Position numbers and translations under genes: made by a program. Under the pieces are notes generated by a model that saw nothing but the letters and a program-made list of their open reading frames with translations, was not told where the DNA came from and did not search any database. From the NCBI RefSeq assembly GCF_000214825.1, contig NC_015581.1, positions 1,116,001-1,180,000 of the forward strand: a DNA stretch of 64,000 nt. The letters run 5' to 3'. Each line of letters begins with the position of its first letter. Position 1 is the first letter of the stretch. Shown here in pieces: positions 24,377 through 31,175 of the stretch. The DNA comes from Thiomicrospira cyclica ALM1. GTDB taxonomy: Bacteria; Pseudomonadota; Gammaproteobacteria; Thiomicrospirales; Thiomicrospiraceae.

Positions 24377-26104
24377 CTATGGTTCAGATGAAAATACTTG
24401 TTCATTAATCGCCTCTGCCGCTATTTTATTGAAAGCACCGGCCATACGTATATAATCATTTAAGTACCAACCACCGTTAATTTTTTCATATGCAGCTCCT
24501 TGATCTTCAATAAAAACTTCTAGTCTAGACTGTCTGTTTTTAATAAAATTTGGCATTTCAAAATAATACAAGAATTCACCCGCTCGAAAGTTATAGTAAG
24601 AATTAACTGCTAAGGTTGTTTCATCACAATTTCCTTTTAGGCAATAATTGATTTTTTCCATATTATCTGAAAACCACCATTCAAACTTAACGCCGTCATT
24701 ATTTTCTTCGACAAACCGCTTCCCATCTTTAAGAAGATCGTTTTTTAAATCTGTTACTGAACCAAGATTTTTATTATCAGCACAGTTAAAATCAAACGTA
24801 TTACTACAATTCAAATCAGCAAGCGAAGGCTCACTACGGCCAATATGTTCAAGACCATACTCATACATAATTGATCCTGGTGGAAAGATAATTCGCTTAG
24901 CAAGTACAACTTCGTCTCTATCAAATTGCCCAAAATAATTTAAGGATGCCATGGAAAAAGTTTTTCCAGATATATCAGTCTCATTAACGTAAGTAATTTT
25001 TGCAAATGCTTTTGTTTCCCCTTCATCCGAATAAACGACCAACTCACCATCAACAAACTCAAAAGGATAATCGAAATTTCCAGACGCTCCTTCAAGGTCT
25101 GCAATGTTCCCCGGGAAGCAACTTGAAAAATTATTCCCCCTTTTACACCTAATGTCGTAACCCACCCCTTGCGTTGCATCAAAATGAATCTTTGTTATGC
25201 CTTCCTCTTTTCCATCTCTATAAATTTCATAAATGAAAGGACTGGTTGTAGTAAATAAATCTAAAAAGTCATTTGTTGAAAGAAATCCTCGGCCTAAACT
25301 GATTTGATTGCGCTCTTGCTTGAGATCTAATTGCTCCTGAAGTTTTGTTTCATTCTTAGTGAACTCCTTAACTCCAGCAGTAATTAATGAATTACGGATT
25401 TCATCTGCATCATTTTGTAACTCATCCACAGTTGAAGAAGATAAATCCTGACCAACTATAACGTCTAGGTACTTTAAGATTGTTTCCTCAGCAAAGGACT
25501 GCTTAGCTAAGCTATCACCTTCTAGTTTTTCAAGATCTTCAGATAGCGAGACAAGCATCCGCGCAATGATTTGTGCGAAGCGATGCGTTTCAGAGTTTTC
25601 ACCCGAATCACTAATAAAGTCATTTAAAACGCTGGCCTCATCTTTGCTTAATAGCTTTGCAATAGATTTTGTTGCAAAATTTAAATTTACACCTCTAGCA
25701 AACATATCTGCCTGAACCATTGTTGTGAGGGGACTAACCACTGCACCTTGACCTGGCGGACTTGTCAGTGAAAAGGAACGTGGAATTAAGTCACCGTTTA
25801 AGTCAGTGTCTGTTGTTGTACCTGCAATAGCTTCCACCACAACAGGAAAATTATTAATCTGAGCTTGTGTTACCCCAGTTATGGTATAAGTGCCATCCGC
25901 CGCCGTGATAGCTCGCGGTTCGTTATCATCACAGACCATATTTCGATTCAGATCTAAACAGACAGTTGCTTGACCAAGATAACCATCTATCGCAACGCCA
26001 GTTATCGATAAAGAATCTGTTCCACCATCACCCCCACCACCTAAACATCCTGAAACTACTAGTATGGGAGCAAATAACAGCGACAGTGTAAATTTATTAC
26101 GCAT
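24377..26104 (-). CDS. Large surface lipoprotein A, candidate T2SS-linked paralog
   Basis: Function is not known. The start at 26104 has AAGGA upstream and begins MRNKFTLSLLFAPILVVSGC, a lipoprotein signal peptide with lipobox VSGC (Cys20) followed by a LGGGGDGG linker. Residues of about 30-100 (GVAIDGYLGQATVCLDLNRN onward) resemble a small beta-sandwich carboxypeptidase-regulatory-like domain. The rest (to residue 575) has a helical stretch (about 130-270) and then a beta-rich, cysteine-containing region. The first roughly 120 codons and the promoter are nearly identical to the paralog at 26328, while the remainder is only distantly alike. Leucine at +2 predicts the outer membrane. It lies downstream of the gsp operon and may be a T2SS substrate (inference). 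Confidence 0.75.
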   Translation of the reverse strand: MRNKFTLSLLFAPILVVSGCLGGGGDGGTDSLSITGVAIDGYLGQATVCLDLNRNMVCDDNEPRAITAADGTYTITGVTQAQINNFPVVVEAIAGTTTDTDLNGDLIPRSFSLTSPPGQGAVVSPLTTMVQADMFARGVNLNFATKSIAKLLSKDEASVLNDFISDSGENSETHRFAQIIARMLVSLSEDLEKLEGDSLAKQSFAEETILKYLDVIVGQDLSSSTVDELQNDADEIRNSLITAGVKEFTKNETKLQEQLDLKQERNQISLGRGFLSTNDFLDLFTTTSPFIYEIYRDGKEEGITKIHFDATQGVGYDIRCKRGNNFSSCFPGNIADLEGASGNFDYPFEFVDGELVVYSDEGETKAFAKITYVNETDISGKTFSMASLNYFGQFDRDEVVLAKRIIFPPGSIMYEYGLEHIGRSEPSLADLNCSNTFDFNCADNKNLGSVTDLKNDLLKDGKRFVEENNDGVKFEWWFSDNMEKINYCLKGNCDETTLAVNSYYNFRAGEFLYYFEMPNFIKNRQSRLEVFIEDQGAAYEKINGGWYLNDYIRMAGAFNKIAAEAINEQVFSSEP

Positions 26105-26145
26105 AGGATTTTCCTTAATTAATACATAAATACTTATACTAGAAC
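25741..26145 (-). repeat. Homogenised 5' segment, copy A
   Basis: This roughly 400-bp segment matches 27710-28114 with about eight differences by my count, without visible indels. It covers the 5' UTR, the ribosome binding site, the signal peptide and about 120 codons, ending abruptly after VVSPLT. Further upstream, similarity to copy B continues at a lower level to about 26230. Confidence 0.85.
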
Positions 26146-26327
26146 AACACGTAGCGTAACTAATGTTTTCAATCAATTACATAATAGCAATAAATCAATC
26201 TTCCGTTTACCAAGCAGACAAACTAATCAAAAATAAATTATTTAGAGTCTTATAGTTTTTTAAATAATTGCACTAAAATTGCACACTATGCATTACTTAA
26301 AATCAATGCATTATGAAATAAATAAAA

Positions 26328-28073
26328 TCACTCAACCACTTGTTCTAACAAATCTTTAATTGCGATATCATTAAAAAAAGAAAAAGGGTTTATAAACTCA
26401 ACCAAAAACCAATCCCTTTCAAACCAGTAAAGTTTATTATTATGCTCAGTAAATATTTGGGCCACAAATCTGCCATCTCTCAAGTATGGCCCCATATCTA
26501 GGTAAGAAATAAAGCTTTTACCTTCCACAAAATGTGACTTCACACTTTTAGTTGTATCACTTTTGCAAGTGTTATTTGTGTTTCTATCACAATAAAAAAT
26601 TGTTTGCAAATCTTCAGAAAACCAAATTAGATTATTATTAGCAGCCTCTCCTTTTGTTCCTTCTTTTGGAAGAAGCATTTTATGGCCTATAACATTGGTT
26701 TCATTATCAAAAGTATGATCATTTTCAGCAGCATCTTCACACTGGTACCATGATGATTCTTTATTATCACAAATTTTCTCATAAGAGGCATTTTGATCAT
26801 TAAGGTCAGGGCCAATCATTGAACGCCACATAAAATCAATACGCTTTGCACCCTCAGAAAAATTAATTTCTTTTGCGTGAATATTTTCGTTAAAACTTTT
26901 GGCCGCTGGATCAAGTCCGCCTAATGTTGTCTGAAGCCCAGACAGGTCATATGAGTTAAACCGTGCAACCTTATGCAAAATACGGTCAGCACCATCAACT
27001 TTAACTTTGAATAAATTACTTTCTACTTCATAGTCATAGTCATTTGTATCATCTTTCCGCACAGGTTGATCTAGTTGTATGCAGCCATCTAACCCATTTA
27101 TTGTGCAGTCTCTTGTAAAGACACTTCCAGAAAAGTTGTCCTCAGGAAAAAAGGAAACTTTCCTTACAGTGTGTCCACTACCATCATACCAAACCTGAAA
27201 TATTCCATCACCATTGCCATAGTCGGATAATAGCTGTTCAAATAAAACCTCACTAACTCGACTTCTAATTTCGATACGATTTTTTTGATCAGCAATTAGA
27301 TCATCTACATTTAAGCCCTCAACTAATGTCAAAGAAGCTTGATCAACTATGATCTGAATCTCATCAATAGTAGGTCGTGATTCATTACTAATTTTTTTAA
27401 TTAGACCCAAAAAACCCTTTGACTGGCTTAGAACCAGTTCATTTACAGAGGATGTAAGATACTGCTGATCCTCTTCATTTGTTATTTTATCTTTTAATTG
27501 GTCCTTTAACCTGGCTTGAAGACGGACAAGCGATTGTGCGGCAACGTGCGCCTGTATATTTCCAGAAACAATAAAGTCACCTATTATATTGTTTCTATTG
27601 TCGATGCTTGAGTCATTAAAGACTAGGCCAGCCACCATTGTTTGCGCATCTTCCAACCTAAAGCCATCATGTACTTTTAAACCGGCAAGGCTGGTTAAAG
27701 GACTCACTACTGCACCTTGACCTGGCGGACTTGTCAGTGAAAAGGAACGTGGAATTAAGTCACCGTTTAAGTCAGTATCTGTTGTTGTACCTGCAATAGC
27801 TTCTACAACAACAGGAAAACTATTAATCTGAGCTTGTGTTACCCCAGTTATGGTATAGGTGCCATCCGCCGCCGTGATAGCTCGCGGTTCGTTATCATCA
27901 CAGACCATATTTCGATTCAGATCTAAACAGACAGTTGCTTGGCCAAGATAACCATCTATCGCAACGCCAGTTATCGATAAAGAATCTGTTCCACCATCCC
28001 CCCCACCACCTAAACATCCTGAAACTACTAGTATGGGAGCAAACAACAGCGACAGTGTAAATTTATTACGCAT
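26328..28073 (-). CDS. Large surface lipoprotein B, paralog of the gene at 24377
   Basis: The start at 28073 (AAGGA upstream) gives 581 residues with the same signal peptide, lipobox VSGC at Cys20 and LGGGGDGG linker as lipoprotein A. Up to VVSPLT the two proteins differ at one residue (N/S). Beyond that they share only scattered positions. Both have a WFSED- or WFSDN-like motif, a cysteine pair, an FxxYxxM segment and W-L near the C-terminus, so they are true paralogs that have diverged. Four or more cysteines in the variable part could form disulfides. I cannot assign a function. The gap to A is 223 bp. Confidence 0.75.
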   Translation of the reverse strand: MRNKFTLSLLFAPILVVSGCLGGGGDGGTDSLSITGVAIDGYLGQATVCLDLNRNMVCDDNEPRAITAADGTYTITGVTQAQINSFPVVVEAIAGTTTDTDLNGDLIPRSFSLTSPPGQGAVVSPLTSLAGLKVHDGFRLEDAQTMVAGLVFNDSSIDNRNNIIGDFIVSGNIQAHVAAQSLVRLQARLKDQLKDKITNEEDQQYLTSSVNELVLSQSKGFLGLIKKISNESRPTIDEIQIIVDQASLTLVEGLNVDDLIADQKNRIEIRSRVSEVLFEQLLSDYGNGDGIFQVWYDGSGHTVRKVSFFPEDNFSGSVFTRDCTINGLDGCIQLDQPVRKDDTNDYDYEVESNLFKVKVDGADRILHKVARFNSYDLSGLQTTLGGLDPAAKSFNENIHAKEINFSEGAKRIDFMWRSMIGPDLNDQNASYEKICDNKESSWYQCEDAAENDHTFDNETNVIGHKMLLPKEGTKGEAANNNLIWFSEDLQTIFYCDRNTNNTCKSDTTKSVKSHFVEGKSFISYLDMGPYLRDGRFVAQIFTEHNNKLYWFERDWFLVEFINPFSFFNDIAIKDLLEQVVE

Positions 28074-28114
28074 AGGATTTTCCTTAATTAATACATAAAT
28101 ACTTATACTATAAT
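27710..28114 (-). repeat. Homogenised 5' segment, copy B
   Basis: This is the partner of 25741-26145, about 98% identical by eye. It joins directly at its upstream end to the 128-bp repeat 28114-28241. Together the shared block of lipoprotein B runs from the gspN-tail fragment through the promoter into codon 120. Confidence 0.85.
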
Positions 28115-28141
28115 AACACACAGCGTAACTGATTTTGTCAA
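28113..28141 (-). promoter_or_regulatory. Shared lipoprotein promoter, copy B
   Basis: On the minus strand TTGACA (28141-28136) is followed after 17 bp by TGTTAT (28118-28113). The spacer contains AGTTACGCT, conserved in all three lipoprotein upstream regions, and the palindrome TTACGTAA lies just upstream of the -35. The corresponding boxes upstream of lipoprotein A are TTGAAA and TGTTGT. Confidence 0.55.
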
Positions 28142-28241
28142 TTAATTACGTAATACTGATAAAGCTATCTTATGCTTACTAAGTAGATAAACTAATGAAA
28201 ACTTTCAAAATTAACATACATCACCACTGCCCGCGCAACTT
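28114..28241. repeat. 128-bp direct repeat, copy 1, with duplicated gspN tail
   Basis: This segment matches 30286-30413 over 128 bp with four mismatches and no gaps. Its right end (28221-28241) is a copy of the last codons of gspN (KLRGQW then stop, here TGA in place of TAA). A gspN fragment 2.2 kb away from gspN shows that the block arose by duplication of the gspN 3' end with the adjoining promoter. Confidence 0.9.
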
Positions 28242-28430
28242 TACAAGTCCTTCATGTACTGTGAACTTGGTTGATACTGAACTTAATAAGCATCATAAAA
28301 AAACTCACCGAAGATCAAAAATGAGCTTTAGTGTCTTGAATTCAGGGGGACAAAAAACAGGCATTAAATTTCTCATGAAATATACGCGCTAAATTTAGGA
28401 TTGGGTTGATGAGGAATTATGAGTTAGTGT
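28242..28430. other. Short intergenic stretch without a supported gene
   Basis: Between the gspN-tail fragment and the hairpin at 28431 I see no gene. An ATG-initiated frame running from 28195 across the repeat border has no ribosome binding site and no recognisable protein pattern. TCAGGGGGACA at 28343-28353 recalls the GGGGGACAGAC sequence at 23787. Confidence 0.4.
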
Positions 28431-28458
28431 TCAACAACAGCCTAGAGGCTGTTGTTGA
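28431..28458 (-). terminator. Hairpin behind the 513-residue secreted protein gene
   Basis: TCAACAACAGCC and GGCTGTTGTTGA form a perfect 12-bp stem around TAGA, 42 bp after the stop. There is no long U-tract on the minus strand, so it may rely on other factors or protect the 3' end. Confidence 0.6.
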
Positions 28459-28500
28459 AATGAAAACACAAACAAGTGACTGCATTAAAAAACGAAAAGA

Positions 28501-30042
28501 TTACTGTAGTTTTCCATTGATTACAGCAGGCAGCAGCCCCTCATAAGATGGGATATCGAGCCTGTTATCTAGTAAAGTTGTGTCTACATTATTTGGTATT
28601 TTACCGGGAAGATCAACTAAATTTAACTCACTACAATCTTTAGCATCAACGGTATCTAATATTTGTACTAACTCCCAAGCCTTTACAACATATTTAGGTT
28701 CATCGTCTCCCGATTTAGTTAATTCAACGCCGTCTTTTAAAACTGCCGGAAATGGAAATTCAAAGTTTAGGACTTTTAGGTCTTTAAAGGGGAACCCCCA
28801 TAGGTTTCCATTTCCCGAGTACTCTAGAAAGAATGTATCGCCATCATATTCATCATCCTTAGATGGATTTCGCGACATCGATTTTGAATCAAACTCAAGC
28901 GTAAACTTTTTGGGCGCTTCAAACGTAATAGCTTCTCCAGATTCATTTGATACAATATAAGGTTGCTGCAAATTATTTTCTTCGTCTCTATTTTCAACAG
29001 TTTCTATTTTAACAGGCGTTTTGATTGCATTACCAGTAACATAATCTATCTTGAACACCTCTTCATTTTCTGTGGGCACTACACCATCCTCTGTCCATAT
29101 ACCCCAGTAACCTATGTAACCATGCTTATTATTGTATATAAATGGGAATCCTGTATTGACCTCAACTTCATTACCTGTTGCTTTTTCATAAACGCCATAT
29201 TCCAGAACAGCAGTACTTACCACGTCCCTCGCTAGACAAGTTAAATCACCATTTAAACCAGAAATGTTATTTGCAAAATTATTACCGTTTTGAACTTTTA
29301 CTCGATTAGATGTGATATCTTCATCCCAAACCAATCCATAATATTCTCTTTCATTTTCATTGTCCGAGTCCCAAGATTCCATTGTAATTGCTAAACCATT
29401 ACGCCCTTTAGGATCTTTTAAAATTTTCGCAGCAGAGGTAAATATTTCATCATCAATAGGTGTAGACTCGAAATATTCAACAAGCATTTGACCATCATCC
29501 CGTTCGCTTGAAGGTATTGCTTTAATAAAACCACCACCAACCTTTTCGCCTACAATGCCATCTGCATCTTGCGCGTACAGATCCCAACGAAGTGTAAAAT
29601 CTTGAAGTGGCTCTGCCTCAGTAGGCTCTTGCGTAATGGTAGCGAAGGCCTTAATTAAAACCAATGAATCTTCACTCAGAGACCAATTTGGTATCCAAGC
29701 TTCAATTTGTTGCGGGGTTGTATTAGAGTCACGTTCTGAATTGACAATAACAAGCTGCTGACTTTGACTTCTATCGCGATACCATGGAATATCTGATCCG
29801 CATCTATTAAAATTGATTAGAGCCGTATATACGCCTTTGTTTAGCATGTCTTGTGCATTAACTTGATCAACCATACATAAAATAGTATTGACGCTGTTTA
29901 AAGCATACGTACCTGGAGTAAAAGTATAGGCAATTTGTTGTGCTTGGCTATAGTCGGTACTTTCACCACGGAAATCAGCATAGGACTGGGAGGAAATCAT
30001 TATTAAAAATGAGCTTGCTAAAAGTGTATATTTAAATTTCAT
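28501..30042 (-). CDS. Secreted protein of unknown function, 513 residues
   Basis: I do not recognise the family. The N-terminus MKFKYTLLASSFLIMISSQS followed by YA-D is a clear Sec signal peptide, so the mature protein begins near residue 23. The sequence is acidic and predicted beta-rich, with few cysteines (about five) and segments such as GFPFIYNNKHGYIGYWGIW and FFLEYSGNGNLWGFPFKDL. No membrane segment follows the signal. It lies 23 bp downstream of the small lipoprotein gene, so the two probably form one transcript driven by the promoter at 30285-30313. Its place behind the T2SS operon makes it a candidate export substrate (inference). Confidence 0.7.
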   Translation of the reverse strand: MKFKYTLLASSFLIMISSQSYADFRGESTDYSQAQQIAYTFTPGTYALNSVNTILCMVDQVNAQDMLNKGVYTALINFNRCGSDIPWYRDRSQSQQLVIVNSERDSNTTPQQIEAWIPNWSLSEDSLVLIKAFATITQEPTEAEPLQDFTLRWDLYAQDADGIVGEKVGGGFIKAIPSSERDDGQMLVEYFESTPIDDEIFTSAAKILKDPKGRNGLAITMESWDSDNENEREYYGLVWDEDITSNRVKVQNGNNFANNISGLNGDLTCLARDVVSTAVLEYGVYEKATGNEVEVNTGFPFIYNNKHGYIGYWGIWTEDGVVPTENEEVFKIDYVTGNAIKTPVKIETVENRDEENNLQQPYIVSNESGEAITFEAPKKFTLEFDSKSMSRNPSKDDEYDGDTFFLEYSGNGNLWGFPFKDLKVLNFEFPFPAVLKDGVELTKSGDDEPKYVVKAWELVQILDTVDAKDCSELNLVDLPGKIPNNVDTTLLDNRLDIPSYEGLLPAVINGKLQ

Positions 30043-30065
30043 AACCTGTTTACTCTGTAAATTAA

Positions 30066-30242
30066 TTAATCAGCTTGCGCATCAACTATCGTAACTAACG
30101 AGGGAGTTTTTAAACCCTGAATTTCTGAAGTGGCATCTTGAGAAGAGCCTGATGAGGGAGAGTCTGAACCACCACCGCCAAGGCAGCCCGACAATAAAAT
30201 TGCGAACCCAAAAAAAATAGCAAGTAAATAGTTTTTAGTCAT
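30066..30242 (-). CDS. Small lipoprotein, 58 residues
   Basis: A short gene begins ATG at 30242 with AGGGAAA upstream. It encodes MTKNYLLAIFFGFAILLSGC followed by LGGGGSDSPSSG and a 25-residue tail ending VTIVDAQAD, with the stop at 30066. The lipobox LSGC (Cys20) and LGGGG linker match those of the two large lipoproteins, but the downstream domains are absent. It may be an independent partner of the 513-residue secreted protein or a shortened member of the lipoprotein set. The +2 leucine predicts outer-membrane targeting. Function is unknown. Confidence 0.75.
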   Translation of the reverse strand: MTKNYLLAIFFGFAILLSGCLGGGGSDSPSSGSSQDATSEIQGLKTPSLVTIVDAQAD

Positions 30243-30284
30243 AGTGATGATTTCCCTAACTTTTCAATTAATCTTTATTTTAGA

Positions 30285-30313
30285 GTAACACATAGCGTAA
30301 CTGATTTTGTCAA
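30285..30313 (-). promoter_or_regulatory. Shared lipoprotein promoter, copy C
   Basis: On the minus strand TTGACA (30313-30308) is followed after 17 bp by TGTTAC (30290-30285), the same element as at 28113-28141, here driving the small lipoprotein and the 513-residue protein. The upstream TTACGTAA is conserved. Confidence 0.55.
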
Positions 30314-30413
30314 TTAATTACGTAATACTGATAAAGCTATCTTATGCTTACTAAGCAGATAAACTAATGAAAACCTTCAAAATTAACATACATTACCACT
30401 GCCCGCGCAACTT
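30286..30413. repeat. 128-bp direct repeat, copy 2, overlapping the gspN 3' end
   Basis: This is the probable parental copy: its right end is the genuine terminus of gspN (stop 30395-30393). It differs from 28114-28241 at four positions. It contains the promoter for the small lipoprotein. Confidence 0.9.
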
Positions 30414-31175
30414 GGCACGGGCTTCCGTTGCTGATACTTGATTCATCATAATTAATGCCCAATCAGGGAACTGATTGGGCGTATCTGTTGTTAGTACAAA
30501 TTGATTATCAAATTGATTAGGTGGCGTCAGTAGGCTCGTACCGGCTAATTGCCAGCCTTTTTCAACCGAATTGACCTGCAAATTTATTTGTTGTTGCACT
30601 TGGCTTAAGGCTATATCTAATTGTGCAATCGAAGCGCCTAACATCGTTAAATTGGTTAGAACTACATGCCCGCTCACATTGGCTGGCCAAGCCTGCTGAT
30701 TGTCCAAATCAAAAGACATCTGCACATCTCGTATATATACTTGACCACTTAGGTCGCTCAAGATCGGTTGTTGGCGCACGGATTCATATAATAAGCCACC
30801 GACCAAAGGGGCGATAGCCAAACTAGCCGTTGCAATTTCCGCATTCAGCTCATCTGACGATAACAAGATACGCAAATCACTCTGAATAGCGGCATTTTGC
30901 AACACCATATCCATAGGCAACGCCTGCTTTATCAACGCATAAAACACATCGCGCGCAGATACGTGCCAATGCACTTTGAGCGGCTCTAAATTTGGATACA
31001 GCAAAACCGCTTCGCCCTGCCAAACACGCCCCTCTACTTGAGAGATAACCAGGCCTGCTGGTAAATGTGGTTGCAGTTGTTTTAAGCCAAAGCTGGCTGG
31101 CAAATTCACCAAAAAACTGGCTACAAAAACACCGAACAAACCAAAAAAAAGAGCTAAATATCTGCGTAAGCTCAT
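30393..31175 (-). CDS. gspN: Type II secretion system protein N
   Basis: GspN is an inner-membrane accessory protein of the T2SS, found in a subset of systems. The 260-residue protein has an N-terminal membrane segment (LALFFGLFGVFVASFLVNLPAS) followed by the family pattern LPAGLVISQVEGRVWQGEA and a beta-rich periplasmic domain. It is the last gene of the gsp operon and overlaps gspM by 4 bp. Its last codons have been copied to 28221-28241. Confidence 0.9.
   Translation of the reverse strand: MSLRRYLALFFGLFGVFVASFLVNLPASFGLKQLQPHLPAGLVISQVEGRVWQGEAVLLYPNLEPLKVHWHVSARDVFYALIKQALPMDMVLQNAAIQSDLRILLSSDELNAEIATASLAIAPLVGGLLYESVRQQPILSDLSGQVYIRDVQMSFDLDNQQAWPANVSGHVVLTNLTMLGASIAQLDIALSQVQQQINLQVNSVEKGWQLAGTSLLTPPNQFDNQFVLTTDTPNQFPDWALIMMNQVSATEARAKLRGQW

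What the first reader, a model, noticed from the sequence alone, without database searches (positions are those of the whole stretch)
24377..30242. T2SS-adjacent island of lipoproteins and a secreted protein: candidate cell-surface system
Immediately downstream of a complete gspC-N operon, on the same strand, lie a 58-residue lipoprotein, a 513-residue Sec-signal protein and two large lipoproteins. All three lipoproteins have a Cys-Leu-Gly-Gly-Gly-Gly start. Genes for T2SS-exported lipoproteins are encoded beside their secretion operons in Klebsiella (PulA) and Escherichia coli (SslE). The variable regions match nothing I recognise. The set could be a dedicated, undescribed group of exported surface proteins.
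Basis: partly seen in the sequence, partly recalled or inferred. Interest (0 to 1): 0.75.

Follow-up and report, generated by a model that had tools for sequence, protein, structure and literature searches.

The report
Surface lipoproteins and a split anchor
Next to a protein-export machine, this soda-lake bacterium carries a small gene island for proteins that are probably displayed on its outer surface, and one of them seems to be made in two parts, a short lipid-anchored peptide and a larger body that docks onto it, an arrangement that recurs in many unrelated bacteria.

Summary
Behind a complete gspC-N operon lie a 58-aa lipoprotein, a 513-aa Sec protein and two large lipoproteins, all three lipoproteins starting C-L-G-G-G-G. 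A pattern for that start matches three places in the 1.93-Mb genome, all here.

(1) The 58-aa and 513-aa genes look like one module. The 513-aa protein belongs to an unnamed family (80 loci kept, several phyla). Most members are single lipoproteins with a short N-terminal motif. In all 23 Sec-type members found, an upstream gene ends in that motif instead. The two states interchanged at least four times. In a fused homolog's AlphaFold2 model the motif has high local confidence between disordered linkers, which suggests docking.

(2) The two large lipoproteins are paralogs: near-identical N-termini, C-terminal parts 24% identical.

(3) The post-gspN slot holds a subtilase homolog, mostly a visible lipoprotein, in 17 of 29 relatives. 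GspN was recently shown to export lipoproteins with Gly/Ser-rich starts (PMC12802150).

Export by this T2SS is likely but unproven; 513-family relatives mostly lie away from T2SS genes.

The parts
30066..30242 (-). 58-aa lipoprotein: lipobox signal, CLGGGGSD tag, C-terminal docking motif; proposed membrane tether of the 513-aa protein
   Evidence: ORF; only strict motif match among 514 window ORFs of 30 aa or more, 3 with a looser pattern (pattern written after the sequences were seen); same gene order in 23 homologous loci
30069..30125 (-). Docking motif EIQGLKTPSLVTIVDAQAD at the end of the 58-aa protein
   Evidence: Resembles the GLxMPxxxSVV segment of fused homologs
28501..30042 (-). 513-aa Sec-exported body protein, member of an unnamed family; lacks the optional middle part of most relatives
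   Evidence: Homologs; model mean pLDDT 84.3, pTM 0.78; no Pfam or NCBIfam family
26328..28076 (-). Lipoprotein B (582 aa): CLGGGGDG tag, N-terminal domain shared with A, own C-terminal part
   Evidence: C-terminal part has 1 marginal match in 368 other class genomes
24377..26107 (-). Lipoprotein A (576 aa): same N-terminal module as B, C-terminal part 24% identical to that of B
25731..26030 (.). Near-identical 300-nt stretch in A, partner 27700-27999 in B (97%)
   Evidence: family D1
30251..30425 (.). Repeat copy 1: 3' end of gspN plus the region before the 58-aa gene
   Evidence: family D2, 87% to copy 2
28079..28253 (.). Repeat copy 2: region before B, with a remnant of the gspN 3' end at about 28221-28253
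26110..26284 (.). Repeat copy 3 before A (65%)
26031..26047 (-). C-L-G-G-G-G coding site of A (others at 28000-28016 and 30169-30185)
30393..31175 (-). gspN, the T2SS part linked to lipoprotein transport in other bacteria
   Evidence: Pfam T2SSN; PMC12802150
30393..41295 (-). gspC-N operon
   Evidence: H and I named by place and similarity to relatives

Best explanation
The island is probably a horizontally acquired set of units in a slot behind gspN that holds cargo of the GspN-type T2SS: cell-surface lipoproteins tagged by a Gly-rich start after the lipidated cysteine. Lipoproteins A and B are two copies of one display module (tag plus small N-terminal domain) with diverged C-terminal payloads. 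The 58-aa and 513-aa genes are one surface protein in two pieces. The body is exported by Sec. The 58-aa lipopeptide provides the lipid, the export tag and a C-terminal segment that docks onto the body, so that the pair is anchored and exported together. Shown: gene order, tag, motif, families, the recurring pair, repeated change between split and fused forms, high local model confidence of the motif in a fused homolog. Inferred: docking itself (no coordinates were seen), docking between the window's two proteins, surface exposure, and export by this T2SS.
For: Pairing: 20 upstream lipoproteins by script, of which 17 end in the strict motif, L213 and L214 in a looser one and L221 by eye; L179 and L199 lipoproteins and L203, with an unclear signal, by reading. 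Background: of 404 other ORFs in the same loci 13 have an upstream lipoprotein and 0 one ending in the motif. In 52 rows not of the pair type, the motif lies in the chain's own N-terminus in 17 by the strict pattern, 44 by a loose one, and in 7 of the 8 misses by eye. Tree: 5 changes between the states needed, at least 4 across starred branches, against 19.6 in shuffles. Model of fused homolog L150: residues 31-40 have mean pLDDT 93 and 41-50 76, between stretches under 50 (1-28 and 50-61). Export: CLGGGG only in the island; 3 of the 4 C-x-G-G-G lipoprotein starts found in the genome are here; subtilase homolog after gspN in 17 of 29 relatives, with 6.6 of 7 Gly/Ser/Asn/Asp residues after the cysteine in the 14 scored, against 3.9 in 53 other lipoprotein-like ORFs; co-occurrence with gspK 19 of 19; GspN function from PMC12802150.
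Against: A profile of the motif alone does not find the 58-aa gene significantly: rank 5 of 667 ORFs with the first profile, rank 1 with E 0.5 with the second. The strict pattern was written after the sequences were seen, and the loose one also matches the own N-terminus of 5 of 23 Sec-type rows. DSSP does not call the motif a strand, and pLDDT alone does not show contact with the body. Position P2' is Leu, where the published motif has Gly, Asp or Asn. No gspK-length match in 15 of 50 genomes with 513-family members; this is soft, because the window's own gspK scores only 25.6 bits with that model. 26 of 31 A/B-domain relatives are not shown near gsp genes. G012, without gspK, had one weak A match. 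Caulobacter ElpS, encoded beside a T2SS, reaches the surface without it (PMC2996285). The 513-aa protein is a long branch.
Confidence: 0.5

Rival explanations
1. Ordinary outer-membrane lipoproteins, sorted by Lol and facing the periplasm or surface by another route, that landed beside gspN by chance in a low-G+C acquired segment. The T2SS plays no part.
For: 513-family relatives have almost no T2SS-like neighbours (2 of 80 loci) and occur in genomes where no gspK was detected; most A/B-domain relatives are not gsp-linked; Gly/Ser-rich starts also occur in Campylobacterota homologs whose genomes gave no gspK match; ElpS precedent.
Against: 19 of 19 co-occurrence with gspK; cargo-like genes (subtilase, GH16 lipoprotein) recur in the same slot in relatives; the C-x-G-G-G start is restricted to the slot in this genome apart from one broken-looking subtilase gene.
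Confidence: 0.28
2. The 58-aa gene is a leftover of a formerly fused lipoprotein; the 513-aa protein has gained its own signal and is a soluble periplasmic or secreted protein that needs no partner.
For: The 58-aa gene is short; the motif profile is weak on its own; no binding data exist.
Against: The same two-gene order, overlapping in Vibrionaceae, is kept in all 23 Sec-type relatives found, in Vibrionaceae, other Gammaproteobacteria, Sphaerotilaceae, Campylobacterota and others, and the state changed several times.
Confidence: 0.15
3. A diversity-generating array: repeated upstream regions and N-termini let the units recombine so that surface payloads change, for example to avoid phages or grazers.
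For: A and B share 97% of 300 nt of the 5' half while their C-terminal parts are 24% identical; three repeats, two of them with gspN-tail sequence; tandem ice-binding lipoproteins sit near the same slot in congener G003.
Against: Only two copies of the A/B N-terminus in the genome; no population data. It is compatible with the main explanation.
Confidence: 0.2

Closest known systems
GspN-dependent T2SS surface lipoproteins (InvL of Acinetobacter baumannii, PulA of Klebsiella; PMC12802150)
   Different: Different proteins, though no direct comparison was run; P2' is Leu; one cargo appears to receive its lipid from a separate protein; no export test
Pilotin and secretin pairs (PulS with PulD) against the lipidated secretin HxcQ (recalled; HxcQ also mentioned in a passage of PMC2996285)
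   Same: A lipid anchor given in trans by a small lipoprotein or in cis by the protein's own lipidation
   Different: Pilotins steer assembly of a channel (recalled); here a segment of about 20 residues seems to dock onto a surface protein; no sequence link was tested
Subtilase (Peptidase_S8 with P-domain, typed in L106) and ~190-aa Sec protein behind gspN in relatives
   Same: Same slot, same strand, same kind of lipid start in most
   Different: Enzyme domain recognised; in the window genome the slot holds other proteins, and a broken-looking subtilase lipoprotein gene lies elsewhere
Carboxypeptidase-regulatory-like small beta domains in lipoproteins
   Same: Two Campylobacterota lipoproteins with the A/B-type domain give sub-threshold hits to PF13620
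   Different: A and B themselves give no hit; the hits are below the curated cut-off

Membership tests
GspN-dependent T2SS surface lipoprotein | Lipoprotein signal with lipobox | tested here: met
   SGC after a hydrophobic segment in all three; pattern rule, no trained predictor
GspN-dependent T2SS surface lipoprotein | Gly/Ser- or Asn/Asp-rich residues P2'-P8' | tested here: met
   CLGGGGDG twice and CLGGGGSD; P2' Leu departs from the published GGG or ND start
GspN-dependent T2SS surface lipoprotein | T2SS with gspN in the genome | tested here: met
GspN-dependent T2SS surface lipoprotein | Surface exposure lost without GspD or GspN | not testable with these tools
   Needs a deletion strain
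513-aa body family (unnamed here) | Sequence homology over the body | tested here: met
   Best E 2e-21; 28-34% identity in the eight strongest hits to other genomes bar the C-terminal one
513-aa body family (unnamed here) | Motif in cis, or in trans at the end of an adjacent upstream gene | tested here: met
   Strict motif at the end of the 58-aa gene, only match of 514 ORFs; weak by profile
513-aa body family (unnamed here) | Middle part of roughly 200-300 aa | tested here: not met
   Absent here; also absent in L130, L131 and L133, so optional
A known fold | Clear match to a solved structure | tested here: inconclusive
   No Foldseek match at E 0.001; VIA-align best Z 6.9 and 7.6, within the range stated as common
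Carboxypeptidase-regulatory-like domain (PF13620) | Pfam curated cut-off | tested here: not met
   A and B no hit; two homologs 14.5 and 14.8 bits against 32.3

The most novel reading that the evidence does not exclude
A widespread, undescribed kind of two-part surface lipoprotein: a dedicated lipopeptide tether carries the lipid, the export tag and a segment that completes the partner's fold, so that a protein without a lipid is displayed as if it were a lipoprotein, possibly through GspN and the T2SS. Evolution has repeatedly fused and split the two parts at the same joint.
Probability: 0.45. Interest if true: 0.75.

Novelty: new variant of a known kind. Interest (0 to 1): 0.6.

Why it matters
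GspN was only recently assigned to lipoprotein export. A gene slot behind gspN that is refilled with exported lipoproteins in relative after relative would be a way to find its cargo in sequence data. If the tether is real, one can no longer tell from a protein's own signal peptide whether it is lipid-anchored: the anchor may be a separate gene of about 50 codons, easily missed in annotation. No Pfam or NCBIfam model hit the body proteins tested (the window protein and four homologs; one hit of 13.4 bits far below its cut-off), and the family includes Vibrio and Geobacter relatives, so the idea can be tested in cultured bacteria.

Tried and rejected
Considered and rejected: the 58-aa and 513-aa genes as unrelated neighbours (the same pair recurs in 23 loci). 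Donor-strand docking as a stated mechanism: DSSP gives no strand at the motif, so I say docking only, and even that rests on local pLDDT, not on coordinates. In the VIA-align rows for the fused model the aligned range often begins at residues 26-33, at the first residues of OspA chains, which may hint at an edge strand; Z about 7 is not enough to claim it. Weak Pfam hits of A (Csx1_CARF, E 0.018) and B (Glyco_hydro_59, E 0.003) are below cut-off and dropped. NCBIfam gave nothing usable for the island or the body family. Promoter-like sites were fewer than in shuffles (18 against 27.3), so no promoter is claimed. PDB by sequence: nothing usable for either profile. Viral structure library: nothing at E 0.001. 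The absence of matches in Foldseek or VIA does not show a new fold. The C-terminal part of B has one marginal match in 368 other class genomes; that of A was not searched by itself. The first scan for upstream partners used a loose rule, gave 21 of 35, some spurious, and missed five visible; one search replaced it. PF03934 also hits ComEA/ComEC-sized frames (names recalled), so I counted gspK-length frames: 35 of 50, one of them only 185 aa, where the tool's tally says 38; its E 1e-5 limit is strict, as the window's own gspK gets 25.6 bits. Of the 35 homologs classed as lacking their own lipobox, 12 are not counted as Sec-type: L145, L158, L160, L175 and L216 are cut or frame-broken; L172, L190, L194, L195, L201, L202 and L215 carry the motif in their own chain by pattern or by eye. 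The large chain of L196 ends early, and the start of L199 is uncertain. The tree left out 11 of the 80 loci (partial or duplicate rows). Papers: the searches showed no description of this family, the slot or such a tether in their listings, in an open-licence library only.
Full report
Where it is. The window lies in a one-contig genome of 1,932,455 bases. That is the length published for Thioalkalimicrobium cyclicum ALM 1, now Thiomicrospira cyclica (renaming recalled), a sulfur oxidiser from alkaline Mono Lake (PMC4891895, passages seen). The identification rests on that length; it was not otherwise checked.

A gspC-N operon (41295 to 30393, minus strand) is followed on the same strand by a 58-aa lipoprotein, a 513-aa protein with a Sec signal, and two lipoproteins of 582 and 576 aa. 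Pfam names C, D, E, F, G, J, K, L, M and N; H shows only the prepilin motif and I was not run. All three lipoproteins start C-L-G-G-G-G after the lipobox. A DNA pattern for that start has 3 matches in the genome, all in the island, against 2 for the reversed control. A wider pattern for C-x-G-G-G has 41 sites (control 51), of which 4 follow a lipobox-like signal: these three and a subtilase gene at about 42 kb whose reading frame looks broken (Pfam Peptidase_S8, E 2e-11). Other Gly/Ser/Asn/Asp-rich starts were not scanned for.

How the island was built. Lipoproteins A and B share 97% of 300 nt. Identity runs from about 40 nt before the start codon to about codon 124 and then falls to chance, while the C-terminal parts are 24% identical over about 300 residues (E 3e-12 for this single comparison). 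This is what an old duplication with later conversion of the 5' half would leave; that is inference. A 175-nt repeat occurs before the 58-aa gene, before B and, weaker, before A, and the copy before B contains a remnant of the 3' end of gspN. A, B and the 513-aa gene have 37-38% G+C and the 58-aa gene 42%, against 45-49% for the four gsp genes tested and 48% for queA. The set therefore looks like three units, [58 aa + 513 aa], [B] and [A], gained and duplicated behind gspN.

The slot behind gspN in relatives. gspK is present in 42 of 62 genomes of the family. I read the region behind gspN in 30 of the other 41. Of 29 with sequence beyond gspN, 17 have directly behind it, on the same strand, a homolog of a gene typed as Peptidase_S8 with a P-domain (Pfam of L106). 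14 of the 17 are lipoproteins by the rule used, L109 and L112 show a lipobox by eye, and L118 is unclear. In 14 of the 17 a Sec protein of about 190 aa follows. The other 12 include three with a 641-aa gene (a histidine kinase in the one typed), several with nothing cargo-like, and two islands. G004 has an M48 peptidase, two outer-membrane proteins and an 1834-aa lipoprotein with A/B-type similarity. G411 has a convergent 1229-aa lipoprotein with A/B similarity, GH16 and carbohydrate-binding domains. In the congener G003 the subtilase is followed by further lipoproteins, two of them typed as ice-binding. The slot thus repeatedly holds exported lipoproteins, and the window is one filling of it.

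Link to the T2SS. A profile of the A/B N-terminal domain (A5) matches 19 of 62 family genomes, and all 19 have gspK (hypergeometric p 1e-4; permutation within genera p 8e-4; among the 51 genomes at least 90% complete, 37 have gspK and again 19 of 19, p 4e-4). Genomes are not independent, so these values are optimistic. G012, without gspK and 85% complete, had one weak match to the single-sequence query (E 5e-4) that the profile search did not repeat. By position the link is weaker. Of 31 other proteins with the domain, three lie within about 20 kb of a T2SS operon (G004 contig 4, G411, G009) and two beside an orphan gspC-gspN pair (G004 contig 25, G008); the other 26 are not shown to be near one. 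Roberts, Gura and Sandkvist (PMC12802150; abstract, sections 5, 11 and 13, part 1 of section 10, and passages read) report that GspN is needed for T2SS transport of lipoproteins but not of the soluble cargo tested in Acinetobacter baumannii, that PulA of Klebsiella needs the GspN homolog PulN, and that a Gly/Ser- or Asn/Asp-rich stretch after the cysteine is required but not sufficient. CLGGGGDG and CLGGGGSD fit this except for Leu at P2'. Among lipoproteins of the gsp loci, the subtilases score 6.6 of 7 such residues on average (14 of the 17 could be scored by the rule), against 3.9 for 53 other lipoprotein-like ORFs, a mixed set that still contains surface-type proteins and some false calls. 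Caulobacter ElpS warns that a lipoprotein gene beside a T2SS need not use it for translocation (PMC2996285, passages).

The 58-aa and 513-aa genes as one module. The 513-aa protein has no relative at E 0.001 in 56 nearby genomes but matches 17 of 368 others in a wider sample of the class at E 0.01. A scan of the species-genome collection with six homologs gave 87 relatives, 80 kept, in Pseudomonadota, Campylobacterota, Nitrospirota, Planctomycetota, Thermodesulfobacteriota and others. No Pfam family hits the members tested; NCBIfam gave one hit far below its cut-off. Most are single lipoproteins of about 800 aa with, after a Gly/Ser linker, a short motif of the form GLxMPxxxSVVxA. Another 23 have a plain Sec signal (the start of L199 is uncertain and the chain of L196 ends early), and in each an upstream gene ends in that motif: 20 lipoproteins by script (17 by a strict pattern, L213 and L214 by a looser one, L221 by eye), L179 and L199 lipoproteins by reading, and L203 with an unclear signal. 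L165 and L166 are two strains of one species. In Vibrionaceae the two genes overlap and the small one ends LQLPQQLEVVTNEND or close to it. In two Campylobacterota the partner is a 238-242-aa lipoprotein that carries an A/B-like domain (blastp E 6e-6 and 2e-4) and ends in the motif, which ties the two kinds of protein of the island together elsewhere. Background: of 404 other ORFs in the same loci, 13 have an upstream lipoprotein by the same rule and none ends in the motif. Of 52 rows not of the pair type, 17 have the strict motif in their own N-terminus, 44 a loose one, and 7 of the 8 misses show it by eye; L205 is unclear. None of the 23 Sec-type rows has the strict motif in its own N-terminus; 5 have a loose, apparently chance, match. 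The window's 58-aa protein ends EIQGLKTPSLVTIVDAQAD and is the only one of 514 window ORFs with the strict motif near its end, 3 with the looser one; the patterns were written after the sequences had been seen. A short profile alone is not significant (rank 5 of 667; rank 1, E 0.5). The case rests on motif, place and partner together.

Split and fused more than once. A tree of 70 bodies (69 of the 80 loci and the window; N-terminal columns removed; quick search with SH-aLRT support) needs 5 changes between the two states, at least 4 of them across starred branches, against 19.6 in shuffled labels. The window protein is a long branch and its exact place is unsure. Breaking or joining the gene repeatedly at the same joint is what one expects if the motif is a piece that docks on its own and the linker is free.

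Model. AlphaFold2 gives the 513-aa body mean pLDDT 84.3 and pTM 0.78 (50-row alignment), and a fused homolog (L150, 824 aa) 85.1 and 0.82 (44 rows). In the fused protein the motif block, residues 31-40, has pLDDT 93 and the next block 76, while the stretches on both sides (1-28 and 50-61) are below 50. A short confident segment between two loose linkers suggests that it is held on the body, but I saw no coordinates, and DSSP does not call it a strand. I could not fold the two window proteins together. Foldseek finds no solved structure at E 0.001 for either model; VIA-align gives middling rows (Z up to 7.6), many of them OspA, whose meaning is unclear.

How it most likely works. Both proteins cross the inner membrane by Sec. 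The 58-aa protein is lipidated, and its last 20 residues dock onto the body protein. The Gly-rich tag keeps it off the Lol route and hands it to GspN, and the T2SS takes the folded pair across the outer membrane, where the lipid holds it. A and B do the same in one chain, with a small N-terminal domain between tag and payload. Steps shown: gene order, tag, motif, pairing, local model confidence. Steps inferred: docking, GspN and T2SS use, surface exposure. What the displayed bodies do is not known; the slot's other tenants (protease, glycosidase, ice-binding) suggest work on the outside of the cell.

Against. The body family is not tied to T2SS genes: in the flanks of 80 loci (up to about 6 kb a side, less at contig ends) only L184 (gspE/F-like) and L219 (gspG-like) have anything similar to the window's gsp genes, and these may belong to pili. 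gspK-length matches were found in 35 of 50 genomes examined (50 of 80 loci were sent); none was found for the Sulfurimonas, Arcobacter and Agaribacterium genomes. The limit used would be near the score of the window's own gspK, so absence there is soft. The tether idea and the T2SS idea stand apart: the first has the better evidence, the second the better fit to this genome.

Verdict. What it took for four proteins is better read as two display lipoproteins and one split lipoprotein. As far as the listings show, in an open-licence library, the split module is not described.

Noticed in passing
L032:7339-9002 (G004) and L033:8756-10398 (G008): An orphan gspC-gspN pair without other gsp genes in the stretch read, divergent from a lipoprotein with A/B-like N-terminal similarity (clearer in L033) and a YjbH-type protein (Pfam PF06082 in L032); in L033 it lies beside what look like polysaccharide genes. 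Possibly a dedicated lipoprotein-export adaptor.
   Followed up: partly
L036:712-7122 (G003): Behind gspN and a subtilase lipoprotein, a 320-aa lipoprotein and three tandem lipoproteins; the two tested have Big_5 and Ice_binding domains.
   Followed up: partly
L295:4830-6554 (own genome, about 42 kb): A subtilase lipoprotein gene with a CGGGGGGG start that appears broken into several frames; the only other C-x-G-G-G lipoprotein start found in the genome.
   Followed up: partly
L119:1967-12271 (G411): Convergent with gspN: a 1229-aa GH16/CBM lipoprotein with A/B-type similarity and two further large genes (1014 and 1154 aa).
   Followed up: partly
L132:8670-10964: A homolog of the 513-aa protein sits beside queA-tgt-yajC-secD-secF, the same genes that flank the island in the window.
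   Followed up: no
L135, L136, L137 behind gspN: A 641-aa Sec-signal gene (a 7TMR-DISM histidine kinase in L136) and a 232-aa gene follow gspN, then prepilin-like genes.
   Followed up: no
L047, L048, L049, L031: By size and look only, a recurring set of Sec-exported proteins of about 290-310, 450 and 460 aa (M48 peptidase, FadL-type and TraF_2 proteins where typed, in L031) beside lipoproteins with A/B-domain similarity, weak in L047-L049; no gsp genes were seen in L047-L049.
   Followed up: no
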